From assembly GCF_028372415.1 (NCBI RefSeq), contig NC_092872.1, positions 392,172,853 to 392,236,852 on the forward strand: a stretch of 64,000 bases of DNA, given 5' to 3'. The stretch is from Notamacropus eugenii (lineage: Eukaryota > Chordata > Mammalia > Diprotodontia > Macropodidae). The position numbers and the translations under genes are program-made. The notes under the pieces are model-generated. The model ran no database searches and was not told where the DNA came from. It worked only from the letters and a program-made list of their open reading frames with translations. This document shows, piece by piece, positions 15,220-20,625 of this stretch (its first letter is position 1; each line of letters begins with the position of its first letter).

Positions 15220-15225
15220 ATTTTG
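15220..15225. repeat. 5' target-site duplication ATTTTG of the provirus
   Basis: ATTTTG directly precedes the TG of the 5' LTR and recurs directly after the CA of the 3' LTR at 20620-20625. A 6-bp duplication is the size made by betaretroviral integrases. Joining the flanks across it restores continuous L1 3' UTR. Confidence 0.95.
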
Positions 15226-15598
15226 TGTAAGGGGCGCTGACCGCCACACCATCTGGGACGCCACACTGATGGACATCAGGTAAACTGAATCCGGTGCAGG
15301 GAAGGGTGAACAAGATGGTGTGGGAAGGGATGGCCCCACCCCTGGTTTGTTTTTGTCACTATAGTTCCAGCTTGTGTTCATTACTATAGCTTTGGGTTTG
15401 TTTGTGTGTGTTACCATGATTCACTGGGCTAGCTGGCAGAGACTATATAATCAGAATGCTTGCTTGAATAAATCCGAGTTGCTTACTGACCCGCTCTCCC
15501 ACCTCATTCTTTTCTTGTGAGCTCCACAGAAGGACAAGCAGTCTGCTGGTCAGGCATAAGACTTGCTCCTCTCAGTAAGCTATGCTGTCACCATAGCA
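15226..15598 (+). repeat. 5' LTR of the provirus
   Basis: It starts TGTAAGGGGCGCTGACC and ends CCATAGCA. A TATA box (TATATAA, 15444-15450) is followed after only 16 bp by the polyadenylation signal AATAAA (15467-15472). The signal therefore lies at the end of U3 and R must be very short, as in known betaretroviruses. By eye it differs from the 3' LTR by 10 substitutions and one 1-bp indel, about 97% identity, which suggests a moderately recent insertion. Confidence 0.95.
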
Positions 15599-15652
15599 AC
15601 TTGGCGCCCACCAACGTGGGGCCATAGCAACTTGACGCTCAAACTGGGGCCA
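15591..15652 (+). promoter_or_regulatory. Primer-binding site region (tRNA-Lys type) with tandem duplication of the LTR/PBS junction
   Basis: Directly after the LTR, TGGCGCCC (15602-15609) and AACGTGGGGC (15613-15622) match the two halves of the tRNA-Lys(CUU)-type primer site, separated by three extra bases. The 31-bp block starting CCATAGCAACTTGGCGC (15591) is followed by a second diverged copy starting CCATAGCAACTTGACGC (15622). So the LTR end and primer site are tandemly duplicated. The second copy matches the 18-nt Lys site at about 14 positions. Confidence 0.75.
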
Positions 15653-15670
15653 CAAGCAGGGGGAAGGAGC

Positions 15671-15791
15671 AGGAAGCTCAGCCAAGGGAAGTGAGGTCCC
15701 TCAGGAAACTCAGCCGAGGGAGTCAGGTCCCTCAGGAACCCCAGCTGAGGGAATCAGGTCCCTCAGTAACCCCCGAGTGAGTCAGGCTCTC
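15671..15791 (+). repeat. Tandem repeat of about 31 bp in the proviral leader
   Basis: Three full units and one partial unit follow one another, at 15671-15702, 15703-15733, 15734-15764 and 15765-15791. Each has the form AGGAA-CTCAGC-GAGGGA-TCAGGTCCCTC. The region lies between the primer site and gag, where packaging and leader structure elements are found in retroviruses. A role is not shown by sequence alone. Confidence 0.85.
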
Positions 15792-15850
15792 CAGAAGCCT
15801 AGAGAGTGTACAGGAGCTATCAGGACAGGCTCAAAAGCAGACACCTGAGC

Positions 15851-16413
15851 ATGACAGGAAACTGTAGCCTGTCTGCCTCACCGAGTTCCTCTGGAAGCAA
15901 ATCCGAAAAGTGGACACAGGAGAAGACGCGCGCATTCAGCTTGAGTGAGACTAGGTATAACCGTGAGTAAGATTGAAACGGGGCAAAGCTCACAAAAGTT
16001 GAGTCAGGGTCAGTACACATTCTTTCTATATAACATGCTGAAGAATGTGTTCATAGAAGACGGTGGCAAGGCAGTGCAAATGAGAACATTCATCATATTC
16101 TCACAGACAGCCCCGTCAGAGTCAGAGAGTAGTACAAGGGACAATAGCCCAGAAAGGCAGCCAGCACCCATATATCTAAACTTAGAAGAGAGATGGAAGA
16201 ACAGACAGATGGTGCAAAAATTTGAAAGACAGTGTTAAAGAGCTAACTGATAAATTGAGAAACTTACTGAAGAAAGAGAAAAGACACCTCAGAGAGAAGG
16301 CTTTGAAACTCCCAGGTGAAAAAGAGGAGACTAGGCGCTGCTGGACTTTGTTCCAGAGTCTCCCTCACTTCCACTTGCAGTTTCACAACTTTTTCTTTCA
16401 AAAACATTTTTAA
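15851..16413 (+). pseudogene. gag: gag remnant: matrix-like N-terminus and a following coiled segment
   Basis: Frame 15945-16238 contains a Gly-Ile-Thr-Val-Ser-Lys start followed by a helix-rich stretch (FFLYNMLKNVF, then GGKAVQM) and a Ser/Pro/Glu-rich linker. This resembles the beginning of a betaretroviral matrix domain. The codon preceding that Gly is CTA rather than ATG, so the start has been lost. An alternative ATG at 15851 opens a short frame that stops at 15961-15963 (TAA). After a frameshift near 16222 a Lys/Glu-rich coiled segment (KELTDKLRNLLKKEKRHL) continues to about 16320. Capsid is absent. The matrix assignment is by position and general pattern, so moderate. Confidence 0.5.
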
Positions 16414-17668
16414 GGAGTGGTCACAGATGTGAAATTTTCTTGAGTAAAAGTTAGAATCATCAAGATTTTTATTTTACTCTATTATCCAGAAATGGTGTTA
16501 GAGAAAGCAATTTGTAATCTGAATTTTGTTGAAACTAAAAGATGTTGGAAAAGTTATGTTATTTAGAAAACCAAGTATTTTCACTTTTGCCTGTTAAAAG
16601 AGTTACAGCTAAAAAGCTGCTGTTTTAATACTAAACCAAAAATTGTTAATGGATTACTATGTGTGGAAAGAAATGAATGGAGTAATAATTTATTTAGACT
16701 GGTTCTGCCCATTCAGAACAGTCCTCCTCTATGTTTGGGATTGGCAGGCATGGGATCCATGCCAATTCCTTTTATTTTGTAAAACTGCCAACGCTCCTTT
16801 CATGTGGACACGGTCATCAGTCCTAAGAAAATTGTTTAGCTTGTATAATTCATAAATAATGAATGTGACTTGCTCAAAAATTGTAACAATTGGCTTTTAT
16901 ATCAGGACAAGTTTTAAATTTGAGAAAGAAGGATCTGAAATGAAATCTCTTATGTATGTGAGTCCTGTTAATCTTCATTGCTTATTTCAACTCCATGGGA
17001 ATACAAATAACTGTATTGGGCTTTAAGTTGGGATTAGTGAAATTTGCTGTTTACAGTAAAAGCATTTGGGACCACAAATAATTTTGTTTAAGTTTGAATT
17101 TGGGTATAGTTGTCTGCATTAAATCAGTATCTGAAAGAATATTCCACAGGTTACTCAGAGGGACTGTGATCCTTCATCCTGTACTGTTCCATAAGGTCTC
17201 TCTCCTTAGATACCTGAGTTCCAGGTATCCAGGGCTTGTGGACGGTCAGTTGGTCCCCTCTCCCCCTTACCATCTACCAGCTTTCTTTGTGAAAGTGCTG
17301 TGGGCTGTAGCTGAAACTTGGAAGGTACCCAAAAGTTACTCAAATCTCCCCTCTTTTCTAAAGCCACATGAGCAATTAAGTTAGATTGTCTGTGTTATGG
17401 AATAAAAATTGTGCTTCAGTTTCTGTAAGTTGCCTCCCTCCACCAGGTGGAAGGATGTCCCTTTCTCGAGAATAGTAATATCACCTATCACCCTCTGAAT
17501 CGTCAAGTTCCTCATACTGGTTAAAGACCTAACCCCTCCAATGTTGGGACCCTGTGAGGCAGGGTCAGCTCTACGTCCATTCTCAGCAGGAAGCAGTTTC
17601 AGAAGCCAAGACCTTCATCCCTTATCCCAAAATATGTTGGGTCCCATCTGCTTTAAGGGAGACAGGGT
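16414..17668. other. Foreign, unassigned insert within the provirus
   Basis: Between the gag remnant and the integrase fragment at 17669 there are about 1.25 kb with no retroviral domain that I can read. The first 1 kb is AT-rich and resembles a cellular transcript 3' region, with AATAAA at 17401-17406. The last 250 bp (about 17410-17668) are C-rich and resemble ERV LTR or 3' sequence, for example CAGGAAGCAGTTTCAGAAG at 17587-17605. It occupies the place of capsid. Origin unknown: captured transcript or another retroelement. Confidence 0.5.
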
Positions 17669-17771
17669 GGGGTGCTTGAGTACATGTACTTGGACCCCAG
17701 AATTCAGGCCAGGTAGAAAGGATGAATAGAACCCTGAAGGAATGTATTGCTAAGCTTAAGGCTGAAATTGG
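17669..17771 (+). pseudogene. pol: Gammaretrovirus-type integrase C-terminal fragment
   Basis: A frame through 17675-17770 reads HVLGPQNSGQVERMNR and then TLKECIAKLKAEIGQK before a stop. The PQxSGQVERMNRTLKE block, which contains the catalytic Glu of the D,D35E triad, is characteristic of class I (gammaretrovirus/ERV1) integrases. It differs from the betaretroviral integrase present separately at 18881-19333 (Glu in the AIVE block). It is about 30 codons long and abuts the nucleocapsid start at 17778. It points to recombination with, or insertion of, a second retroelement. Confidence 0.7.
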
Positions 17772-17777
17772 CCAAAA

Positions 17778-18122
17778 ATGAGATGCTTTAAGTGTGGAAA
17801 AATAGGACATTACCAGAGGGATTGTAGAAATAATGCAGAGGGAAGAAAGGGACTCCAGAACCAAGGGAGCAGAACACCATTTAAGAGTGGGCCAACCACA
17901 CCCTGTCCAAAATGTAAGAAAACAGGACATTGGGCTTCAGATTGTAGGTCATTCCCCCCTCTCAAGGGTAGTGCTCAATATTTAAACATGCAGACGGGTG
18001 TCCCTCCAGCCCAGGAGACAAGGAGGGACTACTGGGAGGAAGCAGAGAGGGTCCCACAGGCCACTTTAGAATTCAGGAAGAAGTACCAGACAATCAAGTC
18101 AGTGCCATACAGTCAAAATTAA
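17778..18122 (+). pseudogene. gag: gag nucleocapsid region with two CCHC zinc knuckles
   Basis: The 114-codon open frame has two retroviral zinc knuckles: Cys3, Cys6, His11, Cys16 and Cys43, Cys46, His51, Cys56 (C-X2-C-X4-H-X4-C both times). A Pro-rich tail (FPPLKGSAQ) follows. This is the genomic-RNA-binding end of Gag. Betaretroviruses have two knuckles and gammaretroviruses one, which supports class II. All ligands are intact. The upstream capsid is missing and the ATG at 17778 is just the first Met in a truncated frame. The frame overlaps the pro frame, which is in the -1 phase. Confidence 0.85.
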
Positions 18123-18538
18123 TTAGAAGCCTAGGGAATTTCCTGATACCTCCATGCACAACTGTATGGTTACCAACAGAGGAAGTATGCATCAAAACAA
18201 AGCAAGAGATTATCATTTCTGCACCAGCAAATGCTTGCACAGGCTTACAGGCCATAGTACAGCAACAACCAATTGGTACCTTGCACAAGATCCTGATGTG
18301 CAACTCTAACAATGTGGAGGTTGAGGTTGATAGAAGGCAACAGGTGGCACAATTGATACAAATGAATCATAACATAGAACAAACAATATATTGGACTCAA
18401 CAAATTGGCAATCAGAGACCAATGCTTACCATATATATAGAAGGAATAACTACAGGTGAATTACACCCATTATATGACATGAGTGCATCTCCAAAATTCA
18501 AACAAAAATCGCAGAGGTTAGCACCAGTAGATATGTAG
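18063..18538 (+). pseudogene. pro: pro remnant: dUTPase-like segment and inactivated protease start
   Basis: The frame is -1 relative to the nucleocapsid and open across its end, as expected for gag-pro frameshifting. The first part (LPTEEVCIKTKQEIII through EVDRRQQVAQLI) resembles the fused dUTPase of betaretroviral pro, with the end motif degenerate. The following block PMLTIYIEG and LYDMSAS at 18470-18490 aligns with the protease active-site region. The catalytic Asp is present (18476-18478) but the normal Asp-Thr/Ser-Gly is Asp-Met-Ser, so the enzyme would be dead. A TAG at 18536 ends the frame and the rest of protease is missing. Confidence 0.7.
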
Positions 18539-18540
18539 CC

Positions 18541-18880
18541 ACACTTATACCAGACCTAGAGACTGCCTGCATATCAACTCAATTAGAAATTGGACAGTTG
18601 CTAACGGAAGTCCAAAACACCATAAGAGGACGTATGTTCCCATTTCCCATTTTACATACAAGATCACACTCCAATCTACCAGGGCCTCTAGCAGAAGGAA
18701 ATGAGGTTGTGGATAGAGTAGTGTCAGGAGGTGTATACCTAGAAACCACTGAGGAAGCTCAGCAGGCTCACAACAAGTTTCATATATCAGCAAAATCATT
18801 GACATTTATATAAACTTACTAAGAAAGAGGCACGAAAGATTGTAAAATCATGCACAGCATGCATTCCTTTCCAGCCACTG
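18541..18880 (+). pseudogene. pol: pol remnant: RNase H tail and integrase zinc-binding N-terminus
   Basis: After the protease stub the text jumps to the end of RNase H. Around 18658-18700 the HTRSHSNLPGPLAEGNEVVD block is the conserved RNase H C-terminal signature of class II elements. The integrase N-terminal HHCC domain follows: two His near 18769-18783 and the Cys pair of SCTAC near 18849-18863. A frameshift near 18810 (a TAA in the RNase H frame) separates the His and Cys halves. The whole reverse transcriptase domain is absent between the protease and RNase H parts. Confidence 0.8.
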
Positions 18881-19333
18881 ATGCCATGGAGAGTGTATAA
18901 TCCTAAGGAATCACATCCTAATGATATTTGGCAAATGGATATGACTCACATAGCTTCATTCGGGAGGCTTAAATATGTCCATGTGTCTATAGACACTTTC
19001 TCCGGTTTAATCATGGCTACTCTACGCACCGGAGAGGCAGTTAAGGACGTGTGTAGTCATATGCTTCAATGTTTTGCCGCCCATGGCATCCCACGACTAT
19101 TAAAGACTGATAATGGCCCAGCATACACTGCTTCGGCCTTCCAAAAATTTCTCTCAGAATTCAGAATCTCTCATGTGACTGGGATCCCCTATAACCCCAC
19201 AGGGCAAGCCATAGTAGAATGTGTGAACCGCACCATAAAACAATATGTCCAAAAACAAAAAGAGGGAGCTTCGGGACCCAGGTCCACAGCACATGATCAA
19301 TTAAAATTGGCACTTTACACAATCAATTTTTAA
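18881..19333 (+). pseudogene. pol: pol remnant: integrase catalytic core, D,D35E triad retained
   Basis: The 150-codon open frame contains the integrase core that joins viral DNA to the host genome. The triad is intact: Asp20 (WQMDMTH), Asp77 (KTDNGPAYT) and Glu113 (AIVECVN), with exactly 35 residues between the second Asp and the Glu. The family type is betaretroviral. Where related proteins usually have Arg-Ala after the Glu, this copy has Cys-Val. The frame stops at 19331 (TAA), about where the C-terminal domain should continue, so a short frame lesion separates the two. The ATG at 18881 is an internal Met. Confidence 0.88.
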
Positions 19334-19559
19334 AATTCGATGAGTATGGCCTTATGTCTGCCATGAAATACATGGTCAGCTCAGACTGACTGCTAGAACA
19401 CGTACCATGCTAACTTGGGGCAAAGGTTATGCTTGTATCTTTACAGGAGACAAGGAGATCTGGGTACCAGTGAAAAGACTACGAGTCGTACAGCACCAGG
19501 AAGAAATCACAGGGATTCTGCCAGAGAAAGAAGAAGAAACTACAACGCCTAAGCCATGA
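19334..19559 (+). pseudogene. pol: pol remnant: integrase C-terminal domain
   Basis: In a new frame the text LTWGKGYACIFTGDKEIWVP followed by VKRLRVV (about 19408-19480) matches the DNA-binding SH3-like C-terminus of betaretroviral integrases. A Glu-rich tail ends in TGA at 19557. That stop overlaps the env ATG at 19556 by the ATGA arrangement. The domain itself looks undamaged; the frameshift lies upstream around 19330-19400. Confidence 0.75.
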
Positions 19560-19633
19560 AATTAGTCAGCTACATCTTACTACTTCTAACAGTGAGCCAG
19601 GCCGAGGACCAGTATTGGACCTTTGGACATTAG
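19556..19633 (+). pseudogene. env: env start: signal peptide only, then stop
   Basis: The ATG at 19556 opens 25 codons: a Lys after Met, then a leucine-rich hydrophobic core and a Ser-Gln-Ala site where a signal peptidase could cut. The frame ends in TAG at 19631. This is the expected place and form for an env leader. The surface subunit that should follow is missing, because only about 80 bp separate this from the transmembrane remnant. Confidence 0.7.
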
Positions 19634-19716
19634 TAGACATTTCAACTTTATAGGACTGGTGAAGGGCTATCCTTGGTGTTTGTACAAATAATGTATCAGT
19701 GGTATTTAGGGAATAA
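19634..19716 (+). other. Deletion junction between env leader and transmembrane remnant
   Basis: This short bridge (TAGACATTTCAACTT through GGGAATAATTGAAG) has stops in the frame that leads into the transmembrane remnant. The surface unit and fusion-peptide region, normally well over 1 kb, have been removed here. Confidence 0.6.
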
Positions 19717-20229
19717 TTGAAGATGGATCACAAATTCTACCAGGCCATTCTAATGTTAAGAAATGATGTAATAGCAATTGGGGATGAACTGCAGGCCATA
19801 GAAACACAATTGGTTTTAAGATGTGATTATAGATATCTTCATTTTTGCATGATGAATAAATTGTACAATGACACTGAATTTAATTGGGAAGAAAGAAGAG
19901 CTCAGTTGCATGGTTTAACACTCACCAACTTTTCTAGTGAAATGAAACTGTTGGAAAAATTGGCATTGGATATAAATACTCAAGGGACACAAAAGTTAAT
20001 ACCTGAAAATTTTGTTTCAGACATGATGCAACTTTTTGGTCATTCCACCTCATTGTTTAAATGGCTAGGTCCATTGTTGTCAGGAGGTATTGTTATCTTG
20101 ATTGTTATATGTCTCATATCAGCATGTCTCAAACATGCCCTACAAACTGTAAAAGATACTATGTGGAAGCTTACTGAAAATCAATTCAAGTTGAGAGATG
20201 TACAAATCTGTGAAGGTCATCGGATCTAA
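19717..20229 (+). pseudogene. env: env transmembrane subunit remnant
   Basis: A 170-codon open frame with a helix-rich heptad start, a Cys36-X7-Cys44 disulphide loop, and a membrane-proximal helix. A single membrane span at about residues 117-138 (GPLLSGGIVILIVICLISAC) and a 30-residue cytoplasmic tail follow. Spacing and order fit a retroviral TM subunit of betaretroviral type. It stops 13 bp before the 3' LTR, overlapping the polypurine tract region as usual. No signal peptide is joined to it, so the membrane topology of any product is doubtful. Confidence 0.75.
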
Positions 20230-20232
20230 AAC

Positions 20233-20245
20233 AAAAAGGGGAAGT
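20233..20245 (+). promoter_or_regulatory. Polypurine tract before the 3' LTR
   Basis: AAAAAGGGGAAG immediately upstream of the TG of the 3' LTR. It is the purine run that would prime plus-strand DNA synthesis. Confidence 0.9.
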
Positions 20246-20619
20246 TGTAAGGGGCGCTGACCGCCACACCATCTGGGACGCCACACTGATGGACATCAGG
20301 TAAACTGAGTCCGGTGCAGGGAAGGGTGAACAAAATGGTGTTGGAAGGGATGGCCCCACCCCTGGTTTGTTTTTGTCACTATAGTTCCAGCTTGTGTTCA
20401 TTACTATAGCTTCGGGTTTGTTTGTGTGTGTTACCATGGTTCACTGGGCTAGCTGGCAGAGACTATATAATCAGAATGCTTGCTTGAATAAATCCGAGTT
20501 GCTTACTGACCCGCTCTCCCATCTCATTCTTTTACTTGCGAGCTCCACAGGACGACAAGCAGCCTGCTGGTCAGGCATAAGACTTGCTCCTCTCAGTAAG
20601 CTATGCTGTCACCATAGCA
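20246..20619 (+). repeat. 3' LTR of the provirus
   Basis: It starts TGTAAGGGGCGCTGACC and ends CCATAGCA, with a TATATAA box near 20464 and AATAAA near 20487. Compared with the 5' LTR it has 10 substitutions and one extra A (TTTTACTTG versus TTTTCTTG). The target duplication ATTTTG follows at 20620-20625. Confidence 0.95.
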
Positions 20620-20625
20620 ATTTTG
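20620..20625. repeat. 3' target-site duplication ATTTTG of the provirus
   Basis: It is identical to 15220-15225. The interrupted L1 3' UTR resumes directly after it. Confidence 0.95.

What the first reader, a model, noticed from the sequence alone, without database searches (positions are those of the whole stretch)
16414..17777. Class I-type integrase fragment and foreign DNA embedded in a class II provirus
The class II provirus has its own integrase at 18881-19333, yet between gag parts there is a second, gammaretrovirus-type integrase end (PQNSGQVERMNR block at 17687-17722). It is preceded by LTR-like and transcript-like sequence and followed within 10 bp by the nucleocapsid start. Capsid is missing at exactly this place. 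Either an infectious or co-packaged recombination made a chimeric element, or another retroelement inserted and was then trimmed.
Basis: partly seen in the sequence, partly recalled or inferred. Interest (0 to 1): 0.75.

Follow-up and report, generated by a model that had tools for sequence, protein, structure and literature searches.

The report
Amplified chimera of three retroelement sources
A defective endogenous retrovirus whose capsid gene was replaced by a piece of a different kind of retrovirus, which itself carried a stretch of an older repeat, copied itself to dozens of places in this (probably marsupial) genome.

Summary
The class I integrase end and the missing capsid are real. The window's own 3.4-Gb assembly explains them. 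At least 67 places carry the same class I-to-nucleocapsid junction. Of the 40 insert copies scored, 33 lie in class II context and 7 in a class I provirus family. In three of the seven, LTR pairs were checked. Those class I proviruses contain the whole block, with class I matrix upstream and class I integrase C-terminus downstream. So the insert is one piece of a defective class I provirus, taken up by a class II virus and replacing the end of gag's 5' part plus capsid. The left junction is about 16257-16272, not 16414; the right junction sits in shared bases GACC. Siblings with capsid joined directly to nucleocapsid exist. 'LTR-like' and 'transcript-like' are not supported: that stretch belongs to an older dispersed repeat (346 pattern matches). 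Best explanation: template switching between co-packaged class I and class II RNAs, then amplification in trans as an ETn-like non-autonomous element. It is a new variant of a known kind; the nested, cross-class gag replacement is unusual.

The parts
15220..15225 (.). 5' copy of the 6-bp target site duplication ATTTTG (3' copy 20620-20625)
   Evidence: joined flanks are matched across by three other repeat copies in the window
15226..15598 (+). 5' LTR of the class II provirus
   Evidence: LTR pair differs at 11 of 375 aligned sites (2.9%)
15602..15622 (+). primer binding site, Lys-tRNA-like with 3 extra bases (type recalled, not tested)
   Evidence: sequence
15975..16256 (+). class II gag 5' part (matrix) with a 66-codon internal deletion at about 16015-16019
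   Evidence: alignment to insert-free siblings L073, L074 (L073 is Gag_p10, E 1.8e-11); deletion found in 29 of 33 chimera loci, the other 4 (L004, L009, L017, L022) not found or out of range. Start coordinate approximate
16257..16272 (+). left junction class II to class I block, in a purine-rich stretch shared by both parents
   Evidence: 30 of 33 chimera loci align across it
16273..17677 (+). passenger stretch X, non-coding here; also inside class I donor proviruses and in an older dispersed repeat family
   Evidence: 8 of 8 tested ORFs of X without a Pfam match
17184..17188 (+). point where most other chimera copies carry about 280-320 bp more of X; this copy and L002-L007 lack it
17680..17771 (+). 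class I integrase end; PQNSGQVERMNR at 17695-17730
   Evidence: same reading frame continues into class I integrase C-terminus (MLVIN_C) in donor L023
17770..17775 (+). right junction; microhomology GACC between class I (CAAGACC/TGGGTG) and class II (GGACC/AAAAATGAG); this copy has lost 5 bp (CAAGA)
   Evidence: 30 of 33 chimera loci join nucleocapsid here, L002 joins RT instead, L008 and L014 not found
17766..18119 (+). class II nucleocapsid, two zinc knuckles, then pro start
   Evidence: zf-CCHC 1.9e-11
17972..18535 (+). class II dUTPase/protease remnant
   Evidence: dUTPase E 0.0036, below its cut-off
18452..18525 (+). pol deletion: RT missing in this copy; about 0.7 kb lies here in L003, and L002 has an RT reading frame
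18803..19330 (+). class II integrase core
   Evidence: rve 1.3e-24; MMTV integrase 1.6e-49
19344..19556 (+). class II integrase C-terminal domain
   Evidence: IN_DBD_C 2e-4, at its cut-off
19717..20226 (+). env transmembrane part, GP41 type
   Evidence: GP41 6.3e-10
20246..20619 (+). 3' LTR of the class II provirus

Best explanation
A defective class I provirus family (LTR, matrix, a stretch X of an older repeat, integrase C-terminus, LTR) and a class II virus were expressed in the same germ-line cells. Their RNAs were packaged together. During reverse transcription the enzyme, moving on minus strand from nucleocapsid towards the 5' end, switched from class II RNA to class I RNA at the shared bases GACC, copied integrase end and X, and switched back to class II RNA in a purine-rich stretch of gag. 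This replaced roughly 0.9 kb of gag, capsid included. The chimera could not make its own capsid but kept LTRs, primer site, leader, nucleocapsid and often much of pol, and was amplified in trans by capsid-competent relatives; later copies lost further parts (X pieces, RT, 5 bp at this copy's junction). Shown: one shared junction, the donor family, the uninterrupted siblings, separate integrations with target duplications. Inferred: co-packaging, direction of switching, use of a helper in trans.
For: Donor: 7 of 40 scored insert loci are class I, with own LTR pairs and 5-bp duplications in the 3 examined. Junctions: right junction pattern in 67 places, control 0; 30 of 33 chimera loci cross the left junction and 30 of 33 the right one. 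Single founding: chimeras share the matrix deletion in 29 of 33 loci. Siblings: 6 of 18 fetched nucleocapsid loci have capsid directly before nucleocapsid, Gag_p24 7.6e-7; 28 native junction matches, control 0. Separate integrations: perfect 6-bp duplication in 7 of 8 tested chimeras (L037 and L042 share one flank) plus the window copy. Timing: LTR-pair divergence 1.7-8.1% in 8 chimeras and 2.9% here against 3.9-5.3% in 3 class I donors.
Against: L044 shows no perfect target duplication. L002 joins RT, L008 and L014 lack the right junction, L004 and L022 have other repeats where the left part should be; I read these as later changes. Class II nucleocapsid bases after the junction differ between two chimera subtypes, so either later recombination or a second event must be allowed. 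The tree of the block is star-like with 4 of 37 inner branches well supported, so it does not by itself order donor and recipient. No expression or packaging data.
Confidence: 0.88

Rival explanations
1. A class I element inserted into one class II provirus in the genome and was then trimmed; the family arose later from that locus.
For: Insert-free siblings exist; the result would also be shared by later copies.
Against: The block lacks class I LTRs at either edge and begins and ends inside class I genes; capsid is missing at the same spot; both junctions lie in short stretches shared by the parents. No flanking duplication seen.
Confidence: 0.06
2. Capture of a host mRNA (3' untranslated region) by a retrovirus, as in classical transduction.
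For: The stretch is AT-rich, without conserved ORF, with AATAAA at 17401.
Against: X is dispersed: 346 pattern matches, control 0; 5 of 14 sampled loci (L080, L083, L086, L087, L088) carry it collinearly about 900 bp with neither class I matrix nor class II leader. The repeat's own ultimate origin, which could include a gene, was not found.
Confidence: 0.05
3. Two independent captures of the same class I piece by related class II viruses (the AAAATG and AAAGGTG subtypes).
For: Subtypes differ just right of the junction and in donor-like bases just left of it.
Against: Identical junction position and shared 66-codon matrix deletion. Later recombination downstream with a helper explains the difference.
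Confidence: 0.07

Closest known systems
ETn/MusD of mouse (PMC6466679 and PMC10089650, passages seen)
   Same: Class II, non-autonomous, LTRs of an autonomous relative kept while internal coding sequence was replaced; mobilised in trans; outnumbers or equals the coding relatives.
   Different: Here the replacement can be traced to class I proviruses in the same genome, only part of gag is replaced and nucleocapsid, integrase and env remnants remain; trans-mobilisation is not tested here.
Non-autonomous mysTR-related ERVs of deer mouse (PMC10089650, passages)
   Same: Recombination replacing internal sequence of an autonomous class II element is proposed there.
   Different: Source of the replaced sequence not seen in the passages; here the source is identified.
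Mosaic HERVs that re-integrated (PMC4724089, passages)
   Same: Several chains with the same internal mosaic, different flanks, same LTR at both ends. That paper records a small number of cross-class mosaics and rates most recombinants as within a class.
   Different: This one is cross-class, replaces capsid rather than env, and carries a third repeat's sequence.
Beta/gamma env recombinants in marsupials, phaCin-beta and Dasyuridae MEBrv (PMC11334065, PMC9231498, passages)
   Same: Class I and class II retroviruses recombining in marsupials.
   Different: Those exchange env; here env is GP41 type and gag is hit.
recKoRV of koala (search listing and abstract starts only)
   Same: Retrovirus recombined with another endogenous element and then spread.
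   Different: Parents there are KoRV and PhER (listing); not compared by sequence here.

Membership tests
Non-autonomous ERV of ETn type | Own LTR pair with target duplication, multi-copy | tested here: met
Non-autonomous ERV of ETn type | Essential gene replaced by foreign sequence, coding relatives with the same LTR present | tested here: met
   capsid replaced; siblings L073/L074 share LTR and leader at 78-89% identity, Gag_p24
Non-autonomous ERV of ETn type | Mobilised in trans by the coding relative | not testable with these tools
   no expression or mobilisation data
Re-integrated mosaic ERV (criteria of PMC4724089) | Same internal mosaic in sense at several loci with different flanks, same LTR both ends, no internal third LTR | tested here: met
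   5' flanks of L001-L003 and L005-L008 differ
Class I (gamma-type) donor | MLV-type matrix and integrase C-terminus | tested here: met
   Gag_MA 1.8e-14 from L021, MLVIN_C 3.5e-11 from L023
Type D beta/gamma env recombinant | Gammaretroviral env on beta backbone | tested here: not met
   env TM matches GP41, 6.3e-10
Host-gene transduction | Insert matches a single-copy host gene | tested here: not met
   346 pattern matches of X; the repeat's deeper origin stays open

The most novel reading that the evidence does not exclude
X is a travelling passenger: a stretch of an older repeat that entered a class I provirus, rode from there into a class II provirus, and in each new carrier replaced coding sequence while the carrier multiplied. 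It may give an advantage, for example a packaging, export or expression signal, so that unrelated retroviral lineages are turned into non-autonomous parasites by the same module.
Probability: 0.15. Interest if true: 0.8.

Novelty: new variant of a known kind. Interest (0 to 1): 0.5.

Why it matters
Origins of the foreign interior of non-autonomous ERVs are seldom traceable. Here recipient siblings, donor proviruses, chimera and an older repeat that shares X all sit in one genome, with both junctions readable to within a few bases. It shows that class I and class II RNAs shared particles in this germ line and that capsid loss did not stop spread: at least 67 chimera junctions against 28 native capsid-nucleocapsid junctions, 18 of which are one tandem cluster.

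Tried and rejected
Late private insertion: rejected, junction shared by at least 67 loci. Host 3' untranslated region: my own early guess, dropped. LTR of a class I element at 17540-17680: dropped, donor LTRs are elsewhere; a similar 165-bp piece lies in X-family locus B. Wide class I LTR age gap (13% by raw BLAST): an artefact of a tandem repeat, 4-5% when aligned. Led nowhere: viral contigs, phage records (chance hits), Rfam (one tRNA hit below threshold at 16581-16645 minus), class I matrix protein search. Counting class I proviruses by their own junction pattern did not complete. Novelty was judged from seven listings; none showed this family, but most subscription papers are not held.

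Full report
WHAT IS THERE. The element at 15226-20619 is a class II provirus: LTR pair, 6-bp duplication ATTTTG, zinc-knuckle nucleocapsid, MMTV-like integrase and GP41-type transmembrane protein. The window is G000:C1:392172853-392236852 of a 3.445-Gb assembly; marsupial origin is my inference from recalled L1-like repeats, not tested.

THE INSERT IS SHARED. Searching the genome with 16414-17777 gave 2617 first-look candidates, 40 scored, 64 matches. I fetched all 40 loci. By flanks, 33 lie in class II context and 7 (L021, L023, L027, L035, L036, L038, L040) do not. Of the 33, 30 align across the left junction; L017 was not fetched that far, L004 and L022 start inside the block with other repeats upstream. 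30 of 33 join the class I end to nucleocapsid; L002 joins RT directly, L008 and L014 lack the site. A 27-base pattern across the right junction matched 67 places with up to 3 mismatches, reversed-pattern control 0; only the junction was tested at these places, and the window copy, which lost 5 bp there, is not among them.

THE DONOR. In the seven other loci the block continues outside the class II junctions. L021 has an MLV-type matrix frame upstream (Gag_MA 1.8e-14) and L023 an MLV-type integrase C-terminus downstream (MLVIN_C 3.5e-11). Three of the seven were examined widely: each has its own LTR pair (substitution divergence 5.3, 4.4, 3.9%) and matching 5-bp flanks ATAAT, AAAAT, CTCAT. They match the window only at 16270-17188 and 17187-17772, with about 1.1 kb more between in L021 and L023. 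So integrase end and foreign DNA arrived as one piece.

THE JUNCTIONS. Right: class I reads CAAGACC/TGGGTG, two insert-free siblings read GGACC/AAAAATGAG, chimeras CAAGACC/AAAAATGAG. Left: class II and class I share a purine-rich stretch at 16257-16272; insert-free siblings go on into capsid. Chimeras also share a 66-codon deletion in matrix that L073 and L074 lack (found in 29 of 33; L009 covers the place but the search string was not found there).

SIBLINGS WITHOUT INSERT. The nucleocapsid-pro piece gave 115 candidates, 40 scored. Of 18 of these 40 fetched upstream, 11 have the insert and 7 do not; 6 of the 7 have capsid directly before nucleocapsid, L061 has another break. Upstream pieces show Gag_p10 (1.8e-11) and Gag_p24 (7.6e-7). 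The native junction pattern matched 28 places, control 0; 18 lie at C2:233.18-235.75 Mb and 3 at C14:82.4-82.9 Mb, so separate integrations may be about ten (inference). More diverged siblings would be missed.

MOBILITY AND AGE. In 8 chimeras 7 have a perfect 6-bp duplication, L044 not; L037 and L042 share flanks and are one integration duplicated. LTR-pair divergence: 1.7, 4.05, 4.07, 5.0, 5.4, 5.4, 6.7, 8.1% in the eight and 2.9% here, overlapping the donors. The tree of the block groups the 7 class I rows (95/92) but is star-like elsewhere; mean distances 4.4% within chimeras, 3.7% within class I, 4.8% between.

WHAT X IS. A 32-base pattern in X matches 346 places, control 0; only part was listed. 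Of 14 sampled places outside the known sets, five (L080, L083, L086, L087, L088) carry X collinearly for about 900 bp at 86-93% identity to each other, running past 16270 without class I matrix or class II leader; L091 has a class I matrix piece and then X, like an intermediate; L079, L081, L089, L090, L092 have a tandem repeat upstream; L082, L084, L085 match in part. X thus seems to be a piece of an older dispersed repeat. Beside one such locus lies a gag-like frame (Gag_p24 1.2e-4, just under the cut-off), so X's carrier may be a third retrovirus; not settled. Against a host transcript: copy number. For: nothing beyond base composition and an AATAAA.

MECHANISM. Shown: one junction pair, donor, siblings, separate integrations. 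Inferred from established retrovirology (PMC5086612, passages): co-packaging, template switching at short shared stretches, mobilisation in trans. Without capsid the element should not spread alone. Later losses: X pieces, RT here, separate nucleocapsid-to-RT jumps in L002 and L006.

COMPARISON. It works like ETn/MusD and fits the published criteria for re-integrated mosaics, but is cross-class, affects capsid, and is nested. It is not a Type D env recombinant.

Noticed in passing
G000 C2:233.18-235.75 Mb: 18 of 28 native capsid-nucleocapsid junction matches sit in one 2.6-Mb stretch at spacings of about 0.1-0.4 Mb: a tandemly amplified locus holding insert-free class II proviruses.
   Followed up: no
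L037 (C1) and L042 (C24): Same flanks and duplication GGGAAT: one chimera integration copied between chromosomes by host duplication.
   Followed up: partly
L093 3978-4523: A gag-like frame with PTAP and PPLY motifs (recalled as late domains) and weak Gag_p24 lies just upstream of an X-family copy.
   Followed up: partly
L002 2857-3753: Chimera in which the class I end joins class II RT directly; a long RT frame is open.
   Followed up: partly
class I LTRs, loci L029-L034: LTRs differ by a copy-number change of an internal tandem repeat between the two ends of one provirus, which inflates raw divergence.
   Followed up: yes
window 16581-16645, minus: Weak tRNA-like Rfam match below the gathering score (20.9 against 29 bits) inside X; probably chance.
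   Followed up: no
window 19336-19717: Little of env surface protein remains between integrase and the transmembrane part: a further deletion in this copy (reading frames; inference).
   Followed up: no
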